The notes under the pieces: model-generated
Told to the model about the DNA's origin: nothing
Databases searched by the model: none
What the model saw: only the letters and a program-made list of their open reading frames with translations
From: Halichondria panicea
Lineage: Eukaryota; Porifera; Demospongiae; Suberitida; Halichondriidae
Assembly: GCF_963675165.1 (NCBI RefSeq)
Contig: NC_087377.1
Coordinates: 6,589,122 to 6,653,121, forward strand
Direction of reading: 5' to 3'
DNA: 64,000 nt
Made by a program: the position numbers and the translations under genes
Shown: positions 2,617 through 56,713 of the stretch, in pieces
How positions within the stretch are numbered: position 1 is the first letter of the stretch
Layout: each line of letters begins with the position of its first letter

Positions 2617-2919
2617 CACGTACTGCAACGTGGGATGTCCTATTTCTTGTCAGACCATATGCATATAATTATAGGCAAACAAAGAAAGGAAGTGGACGGG
2701 GAGAAGGACAAGGTACCGATGACCACCATGTACATAATTGTTTGAATTGCCAAGAACCCAGCTACATCGATCGGTCTATTTATAGCTTGCCTTCTAGAAT
2801 CGCACAGTATACAATCTGCTAAAATTATCAACATTATAATTCTGAACATTAATTTTACAATAATACATCACCAATATCTATGCATAATTATGTACGTCAT
2901 TGTCTTTTCAAGAAGAAGT

Positions 2920-4254
2920 TTACTGCGGCTTATCATTGCATTTCTTCCCACACTTTTTCGTGTCAGGATTAACTGCACACTCGGTATAGACATCGGAGGG
3001 TATAGCCACAGGGCAACTCTCGACAATGTCAACAACATACCACTGAATTTTGACAGATGGAGCAGTGGAGACCCAACGTTGAATGACTTTGACCATCTCA
3101 TGAGCAGATACATCTTCCAGGCCGATTAAAGTGGTCCTATATCAAATCAGAAAAACAAAAAAATTTAATGCACTCTAAGTAATTATTGTCGCGTATCTCT
3201 GATTACGGTATGTTTCAGCTAGTATGCCAATTTTCAAAGGGAAACAAGCTGTAAGCCGTTACTATAGCTGTGTGCAATGCTTGCTTATTATCTTAGTCAA
3301 TAATGTTTACCTAAAGTGGGCCTCAGTCTGGGATGAACGACAACTGAAAAAACTCTTTTCTACCGAAAATGGAGAGTGTGTCGAATTCGTGAAATTGGTA
3401 AGTGGCAGTAGTACTTCCTGAATGGCTCCAATGAAAGCGAGATTGACTTTATTGGCCCTTGATTCCTGTATAATCACAATCATTAGCAAAATTAATGTCA
3501 TGGTATAGCATCATCTGCATGCTATATAGCTCAGAATAATATTATGCCTTGAGTGAGGGGAATCAGTGCTTGGAAGTATAGCTCACCACCGAAATTTTTT
3601 TCAGAATCATGCATGGAACATTTGTAAAGATCTATAGCCACATTTGTAAAGACCTATAGCCATATACATGCAGCCACTTTACCTAAACCCCCTCTGTACT
3701 TATGACCATGCATGCACCATAGTACTTACTTCCCAATTCAAACAGCTACCCAAAATGGGAAGTGCGACCTGGGATCGAGGCTAGGTAAAACTGTGTGTAG
3801 AATCTTGTGCAACGTTTGCCACTATTACTCAAGTGCCTAGACGGCATGCAGTTATACCACACTATCATTGATACAGTAACCTTGCATTTTACTGAGCATA
3901 TACGATGTTATCCTAAGCCCCCAGATACCGGGGGGATATTAGCGCATGCGCAAGCAGTCGATACCAGGCCCACTTCCCTAAGTGAAGTGGGAAGTGCGAC
4001 CTGGGATCGAGGCTAGGTAAAACTGTGTGTAGAATCTTGTGCAACGTTTGCCACTATTACTCAAGTGCCTAGACGGCATGCAGTTATACCACACTATCAT
4101 TGATATAGTGACATTGAATGCAAGGTTACTGATTGCAGCTAGCATGCATGTGAAGCAGAAGCATCCACTGTAAACGATATATGTCCTTACCTAAACCATT
4201 CACAGCTAGAATGCAGCTCCCAATGAGCACCAAAAGAATCAGTGCTGTCTTCAT
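2920..4254 (-). pseudogene. Truncated member of the secreted Ig-CCP family (signal peptide and C-terminal module only)
   Basis: Three exons match the full-length paralogues. The signal-peptide exon is 4254-4191 (starts MKTALILLVLIGSCILAVNG). The penultimate exon is 3465-3311 and the last exon 3136-2920; these two join in phase and have no internal stop. The Ig and both CCP exons are absent. The linker exon survives only as its 3' end and donor near 3725-3755, with its 5' part replaced by a repeat. Exon 1 ends in phase 1 whereas the penultimate exon starts in phase 0, so direct splicing would break the frame. It is therefore probably non-functional, or it needs an exon I cannot see. The C-terminal exon itself is intact, including the four-Cys tail lost in the 9.9-kb paralogue. 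A TATA box (4335-4342) is preserved. Confidence 0.55.
3756..4105. repeat. 118-bp direct repeat, two copies 232 bp apart
   Basis: 3756-3873 and 3988-4105 are almost identical by eye (starting TGGGAAGTGCGACCTGGGAT). The second copy starts inside an imperfect hairpin (about 3959-4011: CGATaCCAGG...ACTTCCC / GGGAAGT...CCTGGgATCG). The repeat overlaps the ruined linker exon of the truncated family member. Confidence 0.8.
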
Positions 4255-15837: not shown

Positions 15838-16960
15838 TTATGGAAGTTCATGACTGGAACAGATGAGTGAGTTGCAATGTTCGTTGTAGTTCATCATTTC
15901 CACATTGAAACTGGTTTCTTTTGGTGCAGATAAAACTCTGGATACGGCATTCTGTTGCTTCTCACTACATTCGTAGACATTCCAAAGAACGATGTCCAGT
16001 TCGCTCTTTAATGATTTTCTCTGAAACACCAGCATTGTATAGCTCAGTAGCTCCTGTTGCTCTGAGGCTATATGATTTGTTCTTCCCAGAATCCCAGCAA
16101 GAGTACACATGTCGTTCACCATTTTGTACAGTTTTTTCTTCCTACCTGCAGGGACACAAGTGTACCATGTTTGAGATTCGAGTTGGACATTTTCGAGGGG
16201 ACAGACGTAAAACAAGTCTGTTTCGATAGCTTTTCTAGGAAGCTTACTGATGTACAGGTCCAGTAGGTAGCAATGGCATCTTTCTCCAGCTTCAGGAACT
16301 GCTGCCATGAAGACAGTTTTGTTCTGCAGGTTTAACTGGCCTAGTCCACCTGTACGGTTTTTGGATGCATTCTCGGTGTATCTGTAGCCTCCGACTTCTC
16401 TTTTCAATTGGGTTCACGATGCTCGTTTCCTCCTCTCAGGCAAAAACTTTTGCCATTTGAAGAGAATACAGCACGTTGAAGTGATACAGGGTCTTGCACA
16501 CCCAATGCTCCAGATGACCAAAGTTGCTGCTCTTCTTCCTTCGAAAATGGCTTTGCTGTTTTCTTCTCCGATCCAATACCATAATTCCTTCCTGAACACA
16601 GAGTCCATGGTGTTCTGAAGAGTGACAAATTCGGCATTGTTTCTTGCAAAAAAGTTTGGACACCTCTGTGGATCAACAGTTCGCATGTATCGAAGGAGGC
16701 CTGACATAATGCTGTGCAGAGTAGTTGGAGGATAGGATTCTCCAGTGACCTTCCTGGTCTCGACAAAAATACTGCAAGCCAATAGTTCAGTTTCTTGGTA
16801 TCCATCTCCTCCAGTAGATTTTCAGGACACTTCAGTCTCCAGTTGGTCTTGGATGTTTCTGTTCTTCAACCAGCAATGGAAGTTTCTTAGAGACCACGCA
16901 GTTGCATATTCTGTCTTCTTAGGAACAAAAGGCTTAGACATGCATGCAGCTTAGTTAGTT
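15838..16960 (-). pseudogene. Decayed Crypton-type tyrosine recombinase
   Basis: Pieces of one protein appear in order across three frames of the minus strand: 'FVPKKTEYATAWSLRNF', 'MDTKKLNYWLAVF', 'PPTTLHSIMSGLLRYMR', 'GKSFCLRGGNEHR', 'SKNRTGGLGQLNL', 'PVGRkKLYKMVNDMCTLAGI', then LRATG (about 16052-16067) and ERTGHRS (about 15990-16008). This is the layout of the DUF3504/Crypton family, also domesticated in vertebrate KIAA1958- and ZMYM-like genes. The catalytic Arg and His-Arg motifs remain readable but lie in a different frame from their neighbours, so several frameshifts have killed the gene. No terminal inverted repeats are seen, as expected for Cryptons, which integrate by recombinase. 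A longer ORF fragment upstream (17084-17278) might be its 5' end, but that is unsupported. Confidence 0.75.
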
Positions 16961-40452: not shown

Positions 40453-42189
40453 TTATGTCTTTATCGGTAATGTTTGTGTTGTGTACGATGTGTGAGGCTT
40501 CATTGATAGTTCGTATTGTTTATCCTGCACATTAGTTTGTTTGCTACCAGCGAGTTGATTGAGTAACCCTTTCAATTTTTCTCCCACGCGAGCACTGACT
40601 ATTTTCTTGGTCGACTTGACTGTCTTTTGCTCAGGAAGGTACACATGATAGTGCCCATCCCCCTCTGTGCTTTTGTGCTGTGTGTCTGTGTGTGGAGATA
40701 AATGATAGTGTATTTCGACTGGTCCACTGTTGTGATCTTGAGGCACACGGTCGAGGCTGGGTTCATCTGATGCCGGGTCGACGTAGTAATGAATGTTTTG
40801 AGGTCGTTGTACTGTTAAAGAAGGGTGTGAGGTACTCTCTCTGTTTTCATGTACATGTACGTTCACTGGTAAAACAGCGTGACGTGTATAGGTATCATAA
40901 TGATATTGATCCAAGAGAGATTGTAGACGATCTAGGAGCTCATTTCGAGTCGTACTGTACCTCATCGGAGCATTATAAAGTGGTAGCAATGGTGGTGGAG
41001 CTTGTAGTAAATCACCATATCTTGTATCCATTTCTCCGAGTGGGCTATTGTATGGGTATTTAGGGTGAAGGGGGTTAGACAGAGGGTTAATCCTATTGAG
41101 TCGTTGATAGAGAAGTTGTGGATAACTCACAGGTTGTCTTTTGTACATAGCACTCATTGGGTCGTATGGCATTGAATAGCCGGGTTGCTTCATCAGTTGA
41201 TTGTAGACCATTGCTTTGAGGTGCTCCAATTGCCTGATGTAGGGTACAATGTAGGTTACATGTTGTGCATCATTCAAATTCGAATTTCGACCATTCTGCA
41301 GCTGACGTAGAGCGTTTCCAAACATTGAGTAAGTGTCTTCAATTTGTTTTATGTTCTGAACTGGGTACATATTGTTGCCTCCATTCGGTGTATTGGTAGG
41401 AGGTGGTGTTACAGTATTCTGTGTGCCTAATGGCGGACCATTTGTTATCTTTCGCTGTGGTGGTGGTTGGTACAGAACTGGTACAGGAGGGAGGAATGGG
41501 AATCGATTGTATGGAAACGCATTATACGGGGAGTATCCAAGTCCTGGTATTGGGTAAGGACCTCCTTGCCAGTTGTTTTGTATTGGCAACTTTCCGACTG
41601 GAACTTGATTTCCAGGTGTATTGACTTGTTTATTGTTTTTGTTTCCTGTTGGTTTGTGTTCCAGTGTGTGCGTAACAGTGTTAGCATTACCTTTAGTACT
41701 ATGAACTTTATTTTGGTGATGTCGTTTCTTGTGTCCGTTGCTGCCTTTGTTTCTCTCGTAGCCTGATTCTAACTGTTCTTCAAGTCGATGTCTTTTACGC
41801 CCTTTTCTAAACTGACGACGACTTCCCAGTTTGCCACGAGAATGATGATGTTCTTTATAATTATTTTCTTGAGAGCTTAACTCCTTATCCGATTTATTGT
41901 GGTGGTGATGATGTCTGTAGTCTGAGTTTTCTTCACTGGTTGAACCACGTGCAGAGGCTGCAACTAATTTTGTATTTTCATCAACATGCTGACTTTGTGA
42001 GAACTTTTCCAGCTGATTACTTGCATCTCTCATATTGTTGTTGTTGATTGCTGCAGTTAGCTCCAGTCCTTTGTTGGTGTATCTACCTTTCGTGGGTCTA
42101 GCATAGTTAGGATGCCATTGTGGAGAAGATTCCGAACTTGTAGCTAACGCTACAGATATGATTAGTACTACTAGAAGATATAACTTCAT
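40453..42189 (-). CDS. Secreted His/Pro/Gln-rich protein, tail-only paralogue of the dermatopontin-tail genes
   Basis: A single-exon ORF of 578 aa with a clear signal peptide (MKLYLLVVLIISVALATSS). Residues about 85-170 are very basic and His-rich (HHHHH near 93, KEHHHSRGK, HKKRHH). Residues 210-290 are Pro/Tyr/Asn-rich (PPVPVLYQPPP, TPPPTNTPN). The C-terminal third carries alternating-histidine strands: VNVHVHE, VEIHYHLSPH, HYHVYLPEQ, then EKLKGLLNQLAG. The same signatures end the dermatopontin-tail proteins at 52.1 and 54.1 kb, so this is their tail without a dermatopontin head. The function is unknown; metal or silica binding in an extracellular matrix is a guess based only on composition. 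It lies 350 bp downstream of a dermatopontin-only gene with its own stop, so I treat it as a separate gene. A degraded duplicate lies at 46.0-50.1 kb. Confidence 0.75.
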   Translation of the reverse strand: MKLYLLVVLIISVALATSSESSPQWHPNYARPTKGRYTNKGLELTAAINNNNMRDASNQLEKFSQSQHVDENTKLVAASARGSTSEENSDYRHHHHHNKSDKELSSQENNYKEHHHSRGKLGSRRQFRKGRKRHRLEEQLESGYERNKGSNGHKKRHHQNKVHSTKGNANTVTHTLEHKPTGNKNNKQVNTPGNQVPVGKLPIQNNWQGGPYPIPGLGYSPYNAFPYNRFPFLPPVPVLYQPPPQRKITNGPPLGTQNTVTPPPTNTPNGGNNMYPVQNIKQIEDTYSMFGNALRQLQNGRNSNLNDAQHVTYIVPYIRQLEHLKAMVYNQLMKQPGYSMPYDPMSAMYKRQPVSYPQLLYQRLNRINPLSNPLHPKYPYNSPLGEMDTRYGDLLQAPPPLLPLYNAPMRYSTTRNELLDRLQSLLDQYHYDTYTRHAVLPVNVHVHENRESTSHPSLTVQRPQNIHYYVDPASDEPSLDRVPQDHNSGPVEIHYHLSPHTDTQHKSTEGDGHYHVYLPEQKTVKSTKKIVSARVGEKLKGLLNQLAGSKQTNVQDKQYELSMKPHTSYTTQTLPIKT

Positions 42190-42536
42190 TTCGCTCTAAT
42201 GATCTGACTATAGAGCTGCACACTTGCTTGGTTCAGTAATACAGTCGTATAGCTGTTGTGAAACAATCATATCGAATGACTAATGAAAAATGTTGTTGTT
42301 ATACTTCCATTCACACTGGATGGGATGTTGACTTATAAACTACTTATTGATCTACTGAATAGCACTTCCTTTTTGCTAATAATAATAATTATTGCTGAGT
42401 GTATTAGTTTGTACATTTGTAATAATTATTGTCAGAAGAACTTTTCATTATCCCACATGTATTATGATTGCATGTATACACTCAATGATTCTATTTCAGT
42501 TTTCTAATCGCCATGAGTTAGTTCGAGTTAGTTTCC

Positions 42537-43614
42537 TCACCCCCATGGGTTAAGATTTGCTAACATGTCGTAGGGCACAAAAAAGAAATGACGACTTTTT
42601 ACAGCTGGTGGCTGATTTGGCTCTTGTTTTGCTGTGTACTTACATTCAAACATCTGCCATGCTCTATCCCTGTGTATAGAAAATGCATGTGTATATAGCA
42701 ATGCATGGTACCTCATTTATTATAGTTGTTACATTTCGTACTGATATATGTTCAGCTCATTGTTCATTGCTGAGATTGAATTCTTGATACATATAGTAAA
42801 AGTATGTGTGTGCATACCTATTATTGATGTGTTGTAAAGTGTGAAGTCCTACAATCGCTCCTTCTTTGAACGTTTCGTGGTCGAACTTTGACCCATATAT
42901 GTTTAGCTTCTTTGTCTTTTTGCAGTCGGTAGTGGTATAACCCGGAGCCTGACAGCACTTTAGTTTCCATCTTCTGTCCTCTTTGGCATTTAAATGCACA
43001 CTCTATATAGTTGTAGTAAGTAGTTAATAGCGAGATGCAACTGACATTAACAACAATAAACGGTAAAAAATTTTCGTCACTCCAGTAGCTTGTACCTTAA
43101 TCCCAGTCAAGACGAAGTTGGCTGGACACTTTTTGTCAATAGGTCCTCCCCACTTATTGATATATGGAGTCCAGCTGCAGTCGCTCATAGGTTTATTGGC
43201 CACCTTACGACAGTCCCACTTCCATCTCCTGTCTCTCCTCCAGTTAATGAAGACGCTCTTCACTCTATACAGAGCCTCTCCATTATTGCTGTTGCACTCA
43301 ACAGAGAGTGGACCGTCTCCTAAGTTATCCCACTTCTGCTGGTTCTGTTTCTCAACATTTATCATTTTCTGTGTAAACTAGATACACATGCATGTGCACC
43401 AAATTAATAGCTGCAATAAAATTATGTGCAGGATTTTTTGTGAATGTAAGCATAATTATTCCCATGTACTTACTTTGTCATCATGGTCATCTTCTCCCAA
43501 GATAGAAGCTAGATCTATCTTTCTCTGTGCTTGTACATCTTGTTCTTTATCTGCGTTGCTTTTTAAAGCCAAACATGTCAGAACAATTACCAAAAGCATA
43601 ATGCAGAGTTTCAT
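42537..43614 (-). CDS. Secreted dermatopontin-domain protein (unit 1 copy)
   Basis: Four exons: 43614-43474 (signal peptide MKLCIMLLVIVLTCLALKS), 43368-43096, 43002-42818, 42669-42537. Phases match; about 243 aa. The mature part is one dermatopontin (DPT) domain with its repeated signature of D-R-x-W followed by Cys (DRRWKWDC, DRRWKLKCC, DRAWQMFEC), CSWTPYINKWGGPID and an even set of cysteines. Dermatopontins are small Tyr-rich matrix proteins of animals (collagen and TGF-beta partners in vertebrates; abundant in molluscan shells and sponge aggregates). The last exon ends in a short tail without His runs. The copy at 50458-51573 encodes nearly the same protein. Confidence 0.8.
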
Positions 43615-43847
43615 TATTTCTCACAATTCTGCTAAACTGTTAATACGTCTATTAAATTTGATCATGGGTTTCGTATTAGCAATAGGATATGCATGACATT
43701 GTGTGTATAGTTCCTGTTCCTAACTGAAAGTTAAGTTTTTAAATGGTTCATGCATGTTACTGTTGGTGGTGTTTGCATGCATAATTAAAAATTATATTAT
43801 ATGCTCCAAAATTCATTGTGAAAAATCTATGGCATATTACAGTTTAT

Positions 43848-44068
43848 TACCGTATATCGGGTAATTTTTGTTGGTGCAAATTTTCGTATAAAGTAGCTAT
43901 AATAATATGTACCCATTTGGTATTCAAATATTTGTACAGCTCAGGATGTGACGTTGAATCTATTGCGGTAGGATAATTTCTTAGTTTTAATTTTCGTATA
44001 ATAATTATACTCTTCAATACGAAATATACGAAAATTTCCACCATATGAAAATAACCCGCTATACGGTA
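43848..44068. mobile_element. MITE, TACCGTATAG family, in unit 1
   Basis: The left TACCGTATATCGGGTAATTT and right AAATAACCCGCTATACGGTA ends are inverted. An orthologous copy at the same position in unit 2 (51798-51990) shows that it inserted before the tandem duplication. Confidence 0.75.
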
Positions 44069-44156
44069 TTTATAATAATTAGCACAAATGCAATGTTCGT
44101 ACACTAGCAATACGGACCTTGCTTATAGCCATAAGGTCATTACTATATCAGTTCAG

Positions 44157-45853: not shown

Positions 45854-47005
45854 TTTGTATTGCAGAGAACTGAGATGGCTGTAAGCTGTCATTTTTGTGT
45901 AATTGTTTAGGTATTCATCTTCACTATACCAAAAGCCTGAGGATAATTATAGGTTATTACAGTCATGCAAACATTAATTGTAGATGAATGACAAAGTTGT
46001 CTCCCATAAAAATTATGATGTGAATAGAAAGGAATGTTTTGAGGTCGCTGTACTGCTAAAGAAGGGTGTGAGATACTCTCATGTACATGTACGTTCACTG
46101 GTAAAACAGTGTGACGTGTATAGGTATCATAATGATATTGATCCAAGAGAGATTGTAGACGATCTAGGAGCTCATTCGAGTCGTACTGTACCTCATCGGA
46201 GCATTATAAAGTGGTAGCATTGGTGGTGGAGCTTGTAGTAAATCACCATATCTTGTATCTATTTCTCCGAGTGGGCTATTGTATGGGTATTTAGGGTGAA
46301 GGGGGTTAGACAGAGGGTTCAGTTGATTGTAGATCATTGCTTTGAGGTGCTCCAATTGCCTGATGTAGGGTACAATGTAGGTTACATGTTGTGCATCATT
46401 CAAATTCGAATTTCGACCATTCTGCAGCTGATGTAGAGCGTTTCCAAACATTGAGTAAGTGTCTTCAATTTGTTTTGTGTTCTGAACTAGGTACATATTG
46501 TTGCCTCCATTCGGTGTATTGGTAGGAGGTGGTGTTACAGTATTCTGTGTGCCTAATGGCGGACCATTTGTTATCTTTCACTGTGTTGGTGGTTGGTACA
46601 GAACTGGCACAGGAGGGAGGAATGGGAATCGATTGTATGGAAGCGCATTATACAGGGAGTATCCAAGTCCTGGTATTAGGTAAGGACCTCCTTGCCAGTT
46701 GTTTGTATTGGCAACTTTCCGACTGGAACTTGATTTCCAGGTGTATTGACTTGTTTCTTGTTTTTGTTTCCTGTTGGTTTGTGTTCCAGTGTATGCGTAA
46801 CAGTGTTCGCATTACCTTTAATGCTATGAACTTTATTCTGGTAATGTCGTTTCTTGTGTCCGTTGCTGCCTTTGTTTTTCTCGTAGCCAGATTCTAACTG
46901 TTCTTCAAGTTGATTTCTTTTATGCCCTTTCCTAAACTGACGACGACTTCCCAGTTTGCCACGAGAATGGTGATGCTCTTTATAATTATTTTCTTGAGAG
47001 CTTAA

Positions 47006-47869
47006 CCCTTTCCCCGTTTTAATTAAAACAAGAAAATACAGAATAAATAACAATTTTCTTTAAAAATTCATATATCATGAACCATACATTGAAATGACTT
47101 GTAACTATTTCCTACAGGTAGCGCAGACCCCAGAGGTATCTTGACACCATCTTCGTTACCTAGCAACTGACCACCCCCACTAATTAGCAATTGTTTACAA
47201 ACATTCACAATTATGTACACAAATAATATTGTATGAGGGCACAAAGTGGCTAAAGACACTAAATAAGTGTTCTCAATGTTCTCACGGTGACATGGTTCAA
47301 TCAAGATCTGCATAAAGTTCTCTGTGAGGTCGTACCAGCAGACGCCCTTTTCCCGGGAAATGTTTTCTTCACCTACACACAGGTTTACGAGTTCAATGGT
47401 GGCTCATGATGTCCACTGCTGACTAACTAGCCTAAATACAGTTATACTGAAGCCTACAAGACTACATATGCTACTCTAGACTTACCAGATCCAAGAAGTT
47501 TATCAATCGCAAGAGCTTCTTCCTCAGGCCTTCAGGCTCGATATTCTTTAGCTTGAGGTAGCTTCTTATCTAGCTATGATCCCAGTCACTATCCTCTCAC
47601 TCAATAAGGCCATAAGCATTGATATTCTCACTGTGTAGCTGCTCTAGAACCTCACTGAGGTTGTACTACAAACGGTCACTTTTCTTTCGACATTATTGTA
47701 CCAAGTGTACCTCAAGGCAGCATATTAAAGATACCACGTGAAAGAGCAGCTCAATGTGCATGTGCTGGTACCTACAGCGTGCCACATAGCTCCAACACAG
47801 CGTACACAGCAAATTTTTGAAAATTACCACTAGAGTGGCCGTCATATGACGGCTTCAACGGGGAAAGGG
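47006..47869. mobile_element. piggyBac-like non-autonomous element, TTAA-flanked
   Basis: Inverted ends of 13 bp (CCCTTTCCCCGTT) lie between TTAA at 47002-47005 and TTAA at 47870-47873. A CCC-initiated end, a TTAA target and a subterminal CCGTCATATGACGG palindrome (near the right end) fit piggyBac-like elements. The interior of about 0.86 kb has no transposase-like ORF. The paralogous sequence at 41877-41880 has a single TTAA, that is the empty site. Confidence 0.75.
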
Positions 47870-48106
47870 TTAAAGGGAGGGTGACACGAAAAAATCAACT
47901 TTTTTATTTTTACATAAATGTGTTCTATTTGGGACCCAGATGCATGTTATAAAGATTGAAATATTTTAATTAATTATTGATGAAGTTACAGAAGGTTTAG
48001 TGAGGCAGATTAGCATCCTGTCTAACATACTTCCTGTTGTGGTTGAATGTGGGCGCGGCTACTACGTGATGTCATAGAAGGAATAGCAACTCAACTGTAG
48101 CTATTA

Positions 48107-48450
48107 TGGTCAACAGATTGTAACTGCTGGGTGCTCAAACACTCCTAGTGATAAAGTAAGCTTGTTTAAGTTTCCCAAGGATGCTGGATTAAAAAAAAGT
48201 GAGAAAAGCAAGTTCAATGAACAAGAGCCCAGTGTATGGAAGGCCACTGATCACTCCTTCGTTTTGTAGTGAACATTTTACTGATGACAGCTTTGAAATT
48301 AACTCAGCTCTTACTTGGCCTGAAGAAAAGAAGGCGCTGAAACCTGAAAATGTCCCAACAATATTTCATCAATCACCCCAAACAGATCACGAAATTGGTC
48401 ATAAGAGAAGAGCAAAGGGAGTGGCATCGGAAGAAGAAGAGGAGTTGTAG
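48107..48450 (+). pseudogene. THAP zinc-finger domain remnant inside transposon
   Basis: Readable pieces in order are GCSNTPSDKVSLFKFPKDAG, then W near 'SVWKATDHSFV', then CSEHFTDDSFE and LKPENVPTIF. These are the start, central Trp and C-terminal half of a THAP domain (C2CH zinc finger with the AVPTIF-like end). A one-base shift separates HSFV from CSEHF near 48267, and the first zinc Cys is lost near 48123. THAP domains bind DNA and are found in P-element-type transposases and host factors. Downstream there is only a Glu-rich stretch and then a stop. Confidence 0.75.
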
Positions 48451-48949
48451 AGAAAAGGCAACGGCATGAGATAAAGGTGCTGTCAATTCTTGCATTTTGT
48501 AAGCTTAACCAGTACAGATTGTCAATCAAATTATTGCTCGACCCTCACACCTTCCAACTGGCTTCTGCTGAAGTCGAACCAGATGATGAACCTAGTCCTA
48601 AATACAACCATGTATCAGTGCAAGCCTGTGTTCAAGTTAGCCAAAGAAATGTGCGTACTCAAGTATTGCCAAAAACAAGCGCTAAGGGTAAAAGCTCTAC
48701 TGGATCTTCACTGATACCTACCAGCCTATTATAAGTAGCGATTTTGTAAAACCAGAAAAATCAATTGCCATTGCTCAGCACCAAAGCAGATTCATCACCC
48801 CTGACCATTAAAGTATACATTTGCTATCATTTTTCATGTTCGTATGACAGTTTATATTTATATTGTTGAATTTGACACTTGTGGATATTTAAATCCAGCA
48901 TAGTTAGCAGAAGGGAAACTTGTCCTGATTTGGTTTACAGCGCAGCTTG

Positions 48950-49635
48950 ATAGTACTACCCTCATTTTCCGACCAAAGCCATCCCCAACACCAACCAACA
49001 AGTTGCCGATAAGCAATGAACCGGTAACGCCTACGAATTAAATACATGGCTTATAATTCAGTAACACTTTATACTCATGGATGTGCTTCTCTTCAGGATC
49101 ACCGTAATGATATCTGTAGTTAGAGTATGCTGTTTGAAGTACCCACACATCGAGGCACACCGGTGTGAATCCTTCATGGTCAGTTATGCAACTTATATCA
49201 GTGTGATTTTCTTCCTTCTTCTCGACGACACTTTCCACTTCACAGCAACATACACACTCTCTTCCCGTTGGCATTATAACACAGTTTCCACGCTCCATGA
49301 CACCTGAATAGATTACATGCTTGTTTATGTGCATTTTTGTATGAAGCACATGCATACCAATGTCTGTTGAGGAGTCTCTCTTCACCTTCAGAGTCATCAT
49401 CATCATCTTCTCCTCCTGGTTCTGTGTCTAATGGTACATGGTGTGTCACTCTCTTCAGGCTCAAACCTGTAGGGCTCAATTGTTTCTTGATTACTTCCAT
49501 GTTCTGAAACTTCTGACACATCATTTCAACAGAAGAGCTTAGAACACCAGAACTACCACTGTCATCACTGCTTGAACTCATAGTTGCTACAATAACTGTT
49601 CCTTCTATGACATCACGTAGTAGTCGCGCCCACAT
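48950..49635 (-). pseudogene. P2X7-type C-terminal (ballast) domain remnant inside transposon
   Basis: The minus strand reads MSSSSDDSGSSGVLSSSVEM, an acidic linker (GGEDDDDDSEGEE), RHW, a candidate intron (about 49361-49310), then GNCVIMPTGRECVCCCEV, SCITDHEGFTPVCLDVWVL, TAYSNYRYHYG and, after a shift near 49040, RRYRFIAYRQLVGWCWGWLW. The Cys pattern C-G-N-C...C-x-C-C...CIT, the VL..A...Y...Y block and R...AYRQ..W match the zinc-binding cytosolic domain at the C-terminus of vertebrate P2X7 receptors, which also occurs without the channel in invertebrates. No P2X channel part is present. At least two frame breaks show decay, although a second intron could explain one. Confidence 0.75.
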
Positions 49636-50457
49636 TCAACCACAACAGGAAGTATGTTAGACAGGATGCTAAATCTGCCTCACTAAACCTTCTGTAACTT
49701 CATCAATAATTAATTAAAATATTTCAATCTTTATATCATGCATCTGGGTCCCAAATAGAACACATTTATGCAAAAATAAAAAAGTTGATTTTTTCGTGTC
49801 ACCCTCCCTTTAATTCCTTATCTGATTTTTTGTGGTGGTGATGATGTCTGTAGTCTGCGTTTTCTTCACTGGTTGAACCACGTGCAGAGGCTGCAACTAA
49901 TTTTGTATTTTCATCAACATACTGACTTTGTGAGAACTTTTCCAGCTGATTACTTGCACCTCTCATATTGTTGTTGTTGATTGCTGCAGTTAGCTCCAGT
50001 CCTTTGTTGGTGTATCTACCTTTCGTGGGTCTAGCATAGTTAGGATGCCATTGTGGAGAAGATTCCGAACTTGTAGCTAACACTACTAGAAGATATAACT
50101 TCATTTCGCTCTATTGATCTGACTGACATATACTCTATAGAGCTGCACACTTGCTTGGTTCAGTAATACAGTCATAATTATAGCTGTTGTGAAACAATCA
50201 TATCGAATGACTAATGAAAAATGTTGTTGTTATACTTCCATTCACACTGGATGGGATGTTGACTTACAAACTACTTATTGATCTACTGAATAGCACTTCC
50301 TTTTTGCTAATATTATTATTACTGAGTGTATTAGTTTGTACATTTGTAATAATTATTGTCAGAAGACTTTTCATTATCCCACATGTATCATGATTGTAAT
50401 ACATGCATGTATACACTCTATTTAGTTTTCGCTATGAGTTAGTTCGAGTTAGTTTCC

Positions 50458-51573
50458 TCACCCCCATGGGTTAAGATTTGCTAACATGTCGTAGGGCACA
50501 AAAAAGAAATGACGACTTTTTACAGCCGGTGACTGACCAGCCGGTGGCTGACTTGGCTCTTGTTTTGCTGTGTACTTACATTCAAACATCTGCCATGCTC
50601 TATCCCTAGGCCTGTGTATAGAACATGTATGTGTATATAGCAATGCATGGTACCTCATTTATTACAGATGTTACATTTCGTACTGTATATTATTATGGTC
50701 AGCTCATTGCTCATTGCTGAGATTGAATTCTTGACGCATATAGTAAATTTATGTGTGCATACCTATTATTGATGTGTTGTAAACTGTGAAGTCCTACAAT
50801 CGCTCCTTCCTTGAACGTTTCGTAGTCCAACTGTGACGCATATATGTTTAGCTTCTTCGTCTTTTTGCAGTCGGTAGTGGTATAACCTGGAGCCTGACAG
50901 CACTTTAGTCTCCATCTTCTGTCCTCTTTGGCATTTAAATGCACACTCTATATAGTTGTAGTAAGTAGTTAATAGCGAGATGCAACTGACATTAACAACA
51001 ATAGACTGGTAAAAAAAGTTCGTCACTCCAGTAGCTTGTACCTTAATTCCAGTCAAGACGAAGTTGGCTGGACACTTTTTGTCAATAGGTCCTCCCCACT
51101 TATTGATAAATGGAGTCCAGCTGCAGTCGCTCATAGGTTTATTGGCCACCTTACGACAGTCCCACTTCCATCTCCTGCCGTCTCTCCTCCAGTAACTGAA
51201 GACGCTCTTCACTCTATACAGAGCCTCTCCATTATTGTTGCTGCACTCAACAGAGAGTGGACCGCCTCCTTTGTTATCCCACTTCTGCTGGTTCTGTTTC
51301 TCAACATTTATCATTTTCTGTGTAAACTAGATATACATGCATGTGCACCAAATTAATAGCTGCAATAATAATTATGTGCAGGATTTTTTGTGATTGTAAG
51401 CATAATTATTCCCATGTAATTTTAGGACTTACTTTGTCATCATGATCATCTTCTTCCAAGATAGAAGCTAGATCTATCTTTCTCTGTGCTTGTACATCTT
51501 GTTCTTTATCTGCGTTGCTTTTTAAAGCCAAACATGTCAGAACAATAACCAAAAGCGTAATGCAGAGATTCAT
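50458..51573 (-). CDS. Secreted dermatopontin-domain protein (unit 2 copy)
   Basis: Four exons: 51573-51433, 51317-51042, 50947-50763, 50605-50458, all in phase; about 249 aa. It is a near-copy of 42537-43614, with one extra residue in the first D-R-W block (RRDGRRW) and a longer last exon (PPAGQSPAVK). A 6-bp insertion (GCCTAG) at the last intron's acceptor creates two usable AG sites, both in frame. All conserved Cys and DPT signatures remain. This is the only gene of the three duplicated ones for which both copies look functional. Confidence 0.78.
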
Positions 51574-51797
51574 TATTTCTCACTGTTAATACGTCTATTA
51601 AATTTGATCATGGGTTTCGTATTAGCAATAGGATATGCATGACATTGTGTGTATAGTTCCTGTTCCTAACTGAAAGTTAAGTTTATGGTTCATGACTGTT
51701 GATTAATTAAGTGATGTTTGCATGATATATGCATAATTATAATAATTTTATAATACTCCAAAATTCATTGTGAAATCTATGGCATTTTACAGTTTAT

Positions 51798-51990
51798 TAC
51801 CGTATACCGGGTAATTTTTGTTGGTGCAAATTTTCGTATAAAGTATATACTATTTGTACAGCTCAGGATGTGACGTTGAATCTATTGCGGTAGGATAATT
51901 TCGTAGTTTTAATTTTCGTATAATAATTATACTCTCCAATAAGAAATATACGAAAATTTCCACCATATGAAAATAACCCGCTATAGGGTA
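51798..51990. mobile_element. MITE, TACCGTATAG family, in unit 2
   Basis: It corresponds to 43848-44068 at the homologous position but is shorter by an internal deletion; the right end reads AACCCGCTATAGGGTA. Its shared position dates the insertion before the tandem duplication. Confidence 0.7.
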
Positions 51991-52080
51991 TTTATAATAA
52001 TTAGCACAAATGCAATGTTCGTATATTCTAGCAATACGGACCTTGCTTATAGCCATAAGGTCATTACTATATCAGTTCAG

Positions 52081-54109: not shown

Positions 54110-56713
54110 CTAACTGCTAAGTGGTTCAGTATTTCTAGAATACAATCTATTGAGTGCTTCAATATATTCCATTTTGTCATCCTTTTTTGGTGCACCTGGG
54201 GCTTCGGCAGGTATTAGGCTAACCACTGATTTAGAATAATTCGGTCGCTCAATAGTAGTGTGATCTCTTGTTTTGATCCTTTGATCAGTTTTGATTCTAG
54301 GAATGTCGGACTGGACATTCAAATTCTTTGGGAGCCTAGAAAGTAACTGGTTAATTTTGTGTACCAAACGCTTTTGATCCAAAGTTTTCCCGGTGGGCCG
54401 CATCTCTTGATGTGATGTATGTCGAGTGTGCATTTCTGTATTTTTTATTGGAAGCTGATCTGCTGTGTGTTGATTTCGGAAATTCGTGCCCCCAGGGTGC
54501 ATGCTCTCCTTATTGTAACTTTCTGGTAGATGAATGTGCACATTCAGAGGTCTTTCGAGATTTTGCTCACCAAGAATTCTCTTCAAACTGCTGTAAGCGT
54601 CATTGTTATTGTGTATCTCTATAGGAATATGAGGGTTCACAGGGCTCTTCAATGACATAGTCGGTACATGGGAATGAAGATGATGCGCAGCAATAGTTAA
54701 TAATGCCTCCTGTAATATTTTTCTGTCCTCATTAGGCAAGCTTTTTTGTAAACTACTAATTCTGTAAAAAGCGTTAAGCCAGTTGGGACTAGTTATGTCT
54801 TGTTGAGGTAGTGATATAAGTGGAGGATATGTTGGATGGAAGAAGTCGTAAGTCTGTTTTGGATAACTGAATTCAGCATTTTGTGGATGGAGTGTGATAC
54901 CCCTGAGCAATTGAAATGGTGTCTGAGGCATTCCAAGAAATCTGTTGTATGAATAATATGGAGACGATATTCTGCTGTCTAGAGCTGAATAAAATGGTGC
55001 CATGTATTGAGGGTGCTGAAATAGATTTGTAGGATTGGAATTCGGACCTACAGGGGCTATCTGGGGTCCATTCATAGGTTGTGATGGTGTAATCGGTGGT
55101 GAACTCTCCATGTAATTTGTTGCGGTTGGAGTTGATAGTAGACGTGGTTGTCTTTGTATTGGAACTGGCCATGGTCTCAGTAGACCAGGTGTTGTCAGCC
55201 ATGGATTGTTCTCAGTCGGTGTAGGGAAATATGCCCGGCTGTTCGATCTTATATTAGGAATCACTGGCCTTGGTAATCCAGGACTTGGAGCAACCATTGT
55301 GTTCGATATTGGTGAGGGAGGTGGTTTCTGGTTAGATTGTTGTTTTGATTCGTGGGGCTTAGATTCAACTGTGTCTGCTACTGGTACATGGTTGTGACGA
55401 TGATAATGAGCACGAGGATGATGCCTATGTTTATGTGGTTTTCTTTCATACTTAGAATCAATATCTTCATTTTCTTTATGGGGATGCCTCATCTTGTGAG
55501 CAAAATGTTTTTCATGCCTTGTACGATGGTTGTCCTGCTGAAAATGACTCTTATGATGGTGATTATGATGCTTAAATTCACTCAAACTCGACCTACTGTG
55601 ATGGTGGTGCCTATGAGTAGAAATTCCCCTCCCAAAATGCTGCTGCTGTTCATGTTTTAATTTCGATTCGGGTTGACTCTCTTCTTTGTGTACAGTTTGT
55701 TTTCGACTTTTACGCTTATGTTTCCTTTTCTTGTTACCTCTTGAGCGTATGCTATTACACTTGTACTTGCAACTTTTCTGGTTAGCATAGGAGCATTGCA
55801 ATATTTTCCACTCCCTATCTCTGCGGAAATGAGAAAAGTTGTCAAAATCAATACAATACTGAGTCAAAATTGTGTTGCTCAAAGTTATTGCCTAAGCCAA
55901 TTAGGTCATAATTATCAACTTACTTGAGTGACTCCCGGTTTATTTCACTAGCCAGACCGGTCATCACACCAGGATCCGAACACTCATCCTTAGAAGTGTA
56001 GAAGAAGGGTTTCCCAAATTTGTTGATAGACTCAGAAATTTTGCATGCTCTTGTGAAATGATTATTGGCTCGGCAACATTTGATCTTCCATTTTCTATCT
56101 TGCTTTTTAGGATTATAGGTGCTACTAATTCCATTAATAACGAAGTTCGATTGGCACATAAAGAGCAAGCTACCTTGAAATTCATTAATCTCATTGCTCC
56201 ACGTACAGTCTGTCATGGGTTCCGTAGCAACACTGTGGCATTGCCATAAGTATTGACGGTCTTTTTCTTTGGCATGGAACTCACTTCGCACTTGAAAAAT
56301 ACCTTCACCATTCTTTTCGTCACACTCAAGGTTCAATGGTTGTCCTAACTGGTTATTCCACTTATCTTTGGCAGTATTAAACAGTTGGTTGTTCTTATTC
56401 TTTTGCTGTATTGTCTTTTGCTGTATTGGATTGCCGTTATATGTGAAATTACAGAGCACTACTGATGTATTACTATCTATTATTATGCTGAAAATTATAA
56501 GTGGGGCCTCAATAGATGTATAGTAATTAATATAACTTTGTTGAAATAGTACGAAATATAGTTTACTAATAATCTAGAGTCCTGTCTAAGAGTATGAACA
56601 TCATTAATTACCTTCTGTGGTTTTTTTGAAGATGTAAGTTTAAATGCATCTACACTCCAGCAAGTCCAAGTCAATGCCAACACTGCTAGTACTACATGCA
56701 ACTTCATTCTCAT
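54110..56713 (-). CDS. Secreted dermatopontin protein with long His-rich tail
   Basis: Three exons: 56713-56612 (signal peptide; Met at 56713 or 56707), 56420-55924 (DPT: DRQYLWQC, CTWSNEINEFQGSLLFMC, DRKWKIKCC) and 55820-54110. About 769 aa. The last exon completes the DPT domain (DREWKILQC), then gives a basic KHKRKSRK stretch, a dense His block (HRHHHHSRSS, HHNHHHKSH, HKHRHHPRAHYHRHNH), a Pro-rich region, and C-terminal motifs IPIEIH, LNVHIHLPES and HKINQLLSRL. It is not part of the tandem duplication, whose right breakpoint lies about 100 bp past its stop codon, so it may be the older family member. Exon 2 has two in-frame acceptors 15 bp apart, made by a duplicated CAAAAGACAATACAG-like unit. 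Confidence 0.78.

What the first reader, a model, noticed from the sequence alone, without database searches (positions are those of the whole stretch)
47874..49809. TTAA transposon carrying a P2X7-type ballast domain and a THAP domain on opposite strands
A 1.94-kb element with ~210-bp inverted ends and TTAA flanks contains convergent remnants of a THAP zinc finger and of the Cys-rich cytosolic domain known from P2X7 receptors. The ballast domain is thought to have joined P2X receptors in vertebrate ancestry from an unknown free-standing source. A mobile element carrying it gives a concrete route by which the domain could be copied around genomes. Each gene begins beside one inverted repeat, as if the repeats supply promoters.
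Basis: partly seen in the sequence, partly recalled or inferred. Interest (0 to 1): 0.78.

Follow-up and report, generated by a model that had tools for sequence, protein, structure and literature searches.

The report
Deleted Kolobok transposon with ballast gene
This is a shortened, non-self-moving copy of a known kind of jumping gene (a Kolobok transposon) that carries the gene from which the tail of the P2X7 receptor is thought to descend; it is real and neat, but the link was already published in 2022.

Summary
Window 47874-49809 is a 1,936-bp element with 214-column terminal inverted repeats (6 differences), TTAA flanks, THAP remnants on + and P2X7-ballast remnants on -. Other copies in the same genome explain it. 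A 3,976-bp copy (L010) has, between the same ends, an uninterrupted two-exon ballast protein (PF20478, 45.2 bits, cut-off 23.5) and, convergent, a THAP-DDD/E transposase with Kolobok motifs. The window copy lacks about 2 kb holding all three residues I assign as catalytic. A sister on C8 shares the deletion (3 mismatches in 1,940 bases), so a form already unable to make transposase probably moved recently with transposase supplied in trans. With a second TTAA repeat it sits at one TTAA of a tandemly duplicated gene whose sister copy shows the empty site. It fits a Kol0-type Kolobok, its ballast gene being KolX. Kojima and Bao 2022 (PMC9587614) already reported that KolX has the ballast fold and concluded that P2X7's tail came from it. 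New member of a known kind.

The parts
47870..47873 (.). TTAA target site, left (shared with the right end of the neighbouring repeat 47006-47869)
47874..48086 (+). left terminal inverted repeat, begins AGGGAGGGTGACACG; the transposase gene starts just inside it
48106..48692 (+). remnant of transposase exon 1 (THAP domain and following region), frame-shifted and stop-bearing
   Evidence: tblastn of L010 exon 1: 48% identity over 219 columns with five stops; THAP 14.4 bits in the window, 72.4 bits in L010
48691..48695 (.). junction of the internal deletion: 1,978 bp of L010 (element positions 847-2824 counted from the transposase end) absent, holding the three residues assigned as catalytic
   Evidence: blastn of the window element against L010: window blocks 1-818 and 822-1936, L010 blocks 1-846 and 2825-3976; junction sequences
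48864..49032 (-). remnant of KolX exon 2 (C-terminal part of the ballast domain), split between two frames
   Evidence: two pieces of 37 and 19 residues, 94.6% and 94.7% identical to L010 exon 2; PF20478 14.5 bits
49077..49581 (-). remnant of KolX exon 1 (acidic N-terminus and Cys cluster), split between two frames
   Evidence: two pieces, 98.6% and 58.7% identical to L010 exon 1
49596..49809 (-). right terminal inverted repeat; the KolX gene starts just inside it
49810..49813 (.). TTAA target site, right, at the junction with the interrupted host gene

Best explanation
The element is a non-autonomous, internally deleted copy of a Kol0-type Kolobok DNA transposon. Shown: longer copies have the same ends, TTAA flanks, a ballast-fold gene (KolX) reading in from one end, and a THAP-DDD/E transposase with DxxH and HHCH motifs reading in from the other; the short form lost the catalytic part of the transposase and its remaining gene pieces are frame-shifted; the short form exists at two places that differ by 3 mismatches in 1,940 aligned bases. 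Inferred: the transposase binds the long inverted repeats (THAP being the likely DNA-binding part), cuts the element out and inserts it at TTAA; the short form moved by borrowing transposase from longer copies; KolX is an accessory protein of transposition whose zinc-ballast domain was later taken up by an ancestral P2X gene, as Kojima and Bao concluded.
For: Ends and flanks. Copies: 12 end matches in the own genome; longer copies L010 (3,976 bp) and L011, the only two that keep the transposase core (2 matches). KolX of L010 with its exons joined: PF20478 45.2 bits, E 1.3e-11; solved P2X7 6u9v, E 1.3e-6, residues 477-598. THAP: PF05485 72.4 bits; THAP1 structure E 1.1e-9. DDE region: Mutator-like transposase PF20700 27.8 bits, cut-off 26.5. 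Motifs GDGRSD, TDRH, FDIWH and HFNENANR in L010 and L011, and HIHNKH...KCSH in one frame in L011. Shared deletion and near identity of window and C8 copies; their similarity stops at the TTAA. Empty site in the paralogous gene. Literature match.
Against: No copy could be read that is open in both genes. L010 loses the frame within the HHCH stretch. L011 has a stop in KolX exon 1 and another in transposase exon 1, and the rest of that exon could not be read because the sequence turns to N. Present activity is therefore not shown. No phylogeny with named Kolobok families was possible, since no eukaryotic transposon library was on hand. KolX exon 1 alone gives no significant Pfam or structure match; the match over the Cys cluster needs both exons, and the intron borders are my prediction. 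The receptor's CC pair is not aligned. A THAP domain alone does not single out Kolobok: the same exon also finds P-element transposase, weakly (E 0.026).
Confidence: 0.95

Rival explanations
1. A piggyBac element: it also uses TTAA and, in a few families according to Kojima and Bao, has a KolX-like protein.
For: TTAA flanks; [quoted passage not shown]
Against: The tip is 5'-AGGG, the 5'-RR which the paper gives as the difference from piggyBac (sequence). The transposase has a THAP domain and the DxxH and HHCH motifs. KolX exon 1 here keeps a Cys cluster, whereas the piggyBac versions lack most of the seven Cys according to the paper.
Confidence: 0.02
2. The ballast piece is a host gene captured by chance by a transposon in this genome.
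For: All copies examined are of one genome; no other eukaryotic genome could be searched.
Against: The P2RX7_C family search of the 131-Mb genome gave 2 matches over 3 candidates, both inside transposon copies. All 13 matches to KolX exon 1 lie in copies or fragments of this element. So no host donor gene was found, within limits: the family search reads exon by exon and missed even the broken window copy. The published Kol0 lineage carries this gene in several phyla.
Confidence: 0.03
3. The window and C8 short copies arose by segmental duplication or an assembly artefact, not by transposition of a deleted element.
For: They differ by 3 mismatches and 13 gap columns over 1,940 aligned bases (99.2% by blastn).
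Against: The similarity ends at the TTAA on both sides although about 200 bases of flank on the C8 side and more on the window side were compared (sequences), and the window copy sits at a site whose tandem paralogue is empty.
Confidence: 0.02

Closest known systems
Kol0 lineage of Kolobok (represented by Kolobok-1_XT): transposase plus KolX
   Same: TTAA flanks, 5'-RR tips, two proteins: DDD/E transposase and KolX with the P2X7-type ballast domain (paper; here).
   Different: The window copy has lost the catalytic part of the transposase and its remaining gene pieces are broken. I could not compare sequences with named Repbase families, so neither length nor gene order could be set against the type.
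Xenopus T2-MITEs and XKol transposases (PMC6004289)
   Same: Short non-autonomous TTAA elements beside longer ones whose transposase has DDE, THAP and H2CH.
   Different: The short form here keeps large pieces of both genes, and I found only two copies of it.
P2X7 receptor C-terminal ballast domain (PF20478; 6u9v and others)
   Same: CQCGNC cluster, CIT, LPSC and the Y-x-GFKYP end align with residues 477-598 of the solved receptor.
   Different: No P2X channel part; acidic N-terminus instead. The receptor's CC pair falls in a gap of the printed alignment, although KolX has CVCCC in the same interval.

Membership tests
Kolobok superfamily | 4-bp TTAA target site duplication | tested here: met
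   TTAA at 9 of 9 ends at which the tip motif was found, in six copies; a single TTAA at the empty site in the paralogous gene
Kolobok superfamily | 5'-RR...YY-3' tips | tested here: met
   AGGG...CCCT
[quoted passage not shown]
   GDGRSD, TDRH, FDIWH, HFNENANR in L010 and L011; which residues are catalytic is my assignment by motif. Absent from the window copy because of the deletion
Kolobok superfamily | H2CH zinc finger between DxxH and E | tested here: met
   HIHNKH...KCSH in one frame in L011; the same stretch is frame-broken in L010. Assignment of the four ligands is mine
Kolobok superfamily | N-terminal THAP domain | tested here: met
   PF05485 72.4 bits in L010; AVPTIF-box equivalent SVPTIF
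Kolobok superfamily | Groups with named Kolobok transposases in a tree | not testable with these tools
   no eukaryotic transposon sequences on hand
Kol0 lineage | second protein KolX with P2X7-type ballast domain | tested here: met
   PF20478 45.2 bits; 6u9v E 1.3e-6
Kol0 lineage | seven conserved Cys of the ballast fold | tested here: inconclusive
   five Cys aligned (three in CQCGNC, one in CIT, one in LPSC); the receptor's CC pair falls in a gap, KolX has CVCCC in that interval. The count of seven is from the paper; which ones they are is recalled
piggyBac | tips that are not 5'-RR | tested here: not met
   tips are AGGG; the distinction is from the paper

The most novel reading that the evidence does not exclude
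The two long inverted repeats are matched inward-facing promoters, one for the transposase and one for KolX. Deletion derivatives such as this one therefore keep a promoter reading toward a ballast exon and carry it into host genes, and this is the practical route by which ballast exons were fused to other genes.
Probability: 0.1. Interest if true: 0.5.

Novelty: new member of a known kind. Interest (0 to 1): 0.25.

Why it matters
It is an independent case of the published idea that the P2X7 ballast domain is a transposon protein: one genome with longer copies, a deletion form at two places and a natural empty site, and no ballast gene found outside the element by the searches made. It does not open a new question, because Kojima and Bao already drew the conclusion.

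Tried and rejected
Rejected: piggyBac (tips and transposase motifs), capture of a host gene (no host ballast gene found), segmental duplication (similarity stops at the TTAA).

Led nowhere: KolX exon 1 alone against Pfam (best E 0.11) and solved structures (0 matches); search of viral contigs with the joined KolX protein (85 stretches matched a pattern, none confirmed; a single protein finds close relatives only); Rfam on the window (0 matches at gathering threshold). An attempt to name the host phylum through papain-type proteases: 77 matches, 25 loci fetched. I read longest frames of eight loci in one direction and five in the other, and motif stretches printed for ten; I saw no clear silicatein, so the host is left unnamed. 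One search read a wrong strand and gave nothing. Blastn between the DNA that splits the copy at C7:5334080-5341244 and the fetched parts of the DNA that splits the one on C1 gave no output. Structure prediction was not run.

Full report
The finding. Window 47874-49809 was described as a TTAA transposon with about 210-bp inverted ends carrying remnants of a THAP domain and a P2X7-type ballast domain on opposite strands. All of this is in the sequence. The inverted arms are 99% and 97% complementary, the 213-base ends differ in 6 of 214 aligned columns, and TTAA stands on both sides. In the window copy alone the two domain matches are below the curated cut-offs (THAP 14.4 bits, P2RX7_C 14.5 bits), because both genes are broken.

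Other copies. Searching the window's own genome (131 Mb, 39 contigs, organism not named) with the left end gave 12 matches, which I group into 8 copies or fragments: the window; C8:1228839-1230779; C7:4019641-4023616 (L010); C7:6478600 onward (L011); C11:1646082 onward (L012); a copy at C7:5333879-5342557 split by about 7 kb; one at C15 around 3005.2-3006.2 kb; and a fragment at C1:10837604-10845244 split by about 7 kb. The tool says such counts are lower bounds. TTAA adjoins all 9 ends at which the exact tip motif was found; in L013 and L015 it was not found.

The longer copies explain the short one. L010 (3,976 bp) carries on one strand a two-exon gene whose 234-residue product scores 45.2 bits against P2RX7_C (cut-off 23.5) and matches solved P2X7 at residues 477-598 (6u9v, E 1.3e-6). 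The intron borders are my prediction from the sequence; exon 2 alone already passes the family cut-off (34.6 bits), exon 1 alone does not match. Convergent to it lies a gene with an N-terminal THAP domain (72.4 bits; THAP1 structure E 1.1e-9, P-element transposase E 0.026) and a Mutator-like DDE region (27.8 bits, cut-off 26.5), with GDGRSD, TDRH, FDIWH and HFNENANR. The core of the transposase was found in two copies only, L010 and L011. The HHCH zinc-finger stretch reads in one frame in L011 and is frame-broken in L010. L011 has a stop in KolX exon 1 and one in the readable part of transposase exon 1; the rest of that exon could not be read. So I saw no copy open in both genes.

The window copy is a deletion derivative. 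Against L010 it aligns in two blocks (element positions 1-818 and 822-1936) and lacks L010 positions 847-2824 counted from the transposase end, which hold the three acidic residues I assign as catalytic. The C8 copy has the same deletion and differs from the window copy by 3 mismatches and 13 gap columns over 1,940 aligned bases, while the similarity stops at the TTAA on both sides. Both copies have KolX split between the same frames, and both have a broken transposase exon 1. The simplest reading is that an element already unable to make transposase was moved recently by transposase made elsewhere; the movement is inferred, the shared state is shown.

Insertion site. The window holds a tandem duplication: 46025-47013 and 49810-52000 match 40784-41890 and 41877-44078 at 90-96% (in which only 46000-52000 was the query, so it may reach further). 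The sister copy reads GAGAGC-TTAA-CTCCTTATC without insertion. In the second copy the order is TTAA, an 864-bp repeat with CCCTTTCCCCGTT ends (47006-47869), TTAA, the Kolobok element, TTAA. The last 234 bases up to the element found 47 matches in the genome with 40 of 390 candidates scored, so the repeat is common. Which of the two arrived first cannot be told. Together they lie inside the counterpart of the frame that is open at 40453-42195 in the sister copy.

Host ballast genes. The P2RX7_C family search found 2 matches (3 candidates), both in transposon copies; it reads exon by exon and did not list the broken window copy. All 13 matches to KolX exon 1 lie in copies or fragments of the element. 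A ballast gene of the host itself was therefore not found at this sensitivity. Viral contigs gave none.

What is known. Kojima and Bao 2022 (PMC9587614; abstract and passages seen) state that Kol0 Kolobok elements encode a transposase and KolX, that KolX is similar to residues 476-595 of human P2X7 and adopts the cytoplasmic ballast fold, that P2X7 arose by fusion of a P2X4-like gene with KolX, and that Kol0 is found in vertebrates, annelids, cnidarians and sponges; its main text does not contain the word THAP. The 2018 Xenopus paper (PMC6004289; passages) gives DDE, THAP and H2CH as usual Kolobok transposase motifs, with TTAA and AG tips, and describes short TTAA T2-MITEs. Rump and colleagues 2020 (PMC7016195; passages) reported free-standing ballast proteins across animals including a sponge; its main text has 0 occurrences of 'transpos'. 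A search for KolX found 1 paper, and one for Kolobok with P2X7 found 2, the second of which, PMC9319628, I saw as a listing only (one occurrence of each word).

Verdict. The promoter idea fits the start codons of L010, which begin 227 and 249 bases from the ends, but was not tested.

Noticed in passing
window 47006-47869: An 864-bp TTAA-flanked repeat with short inverted ends CCCTTTCCCCGTT, common in the genome (47 matches, 40 of 390 candidates scored), sharing its right TTAA with the Kolobok element; piggyBac-like by its ends (recalled).
   Followed up: partly
window 40784-44078 and 46025-52000: Tandem duplication (90-96%) that includes a His-rich, secreted-looking reading frame (40453-42195, - strand); the second copy is interrupted by the two TTAA elements and the first shows the empty site.
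   Followed up: partly
window 50766-51326 and 55920-56573, - strand: Two dermatopontin-domain reading frames (PF14704, 46.4 and 99 bits) lie beside long frames rich in His and Pro (54110-55891), as if a local gene family.
   Followed up: no
window 15838-16413, - strand: Reading frame with DUF3504 (PF12012, 55.8 bits), a domain that I recall from Crypton-derived genes.
   Followed up: no
L013 480-7645; L015 334 onward and L034 up to 3237: Two further copies of the element are each split by about 7 kb of other DNA near similar element positions (265-282 and 227-231 of L010); blastn between the fetched parts gave nothing.
   Followed up: partly
own genome, (for example L048, L049): The THAP exon also found 16 of its 28 matches outside this element's copies; 13 of them are unlisted-locus hits of about 153 bp at 47-49% identity with the same query range, suggesting another repeated THAP-bearing family.
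   Followed up: no
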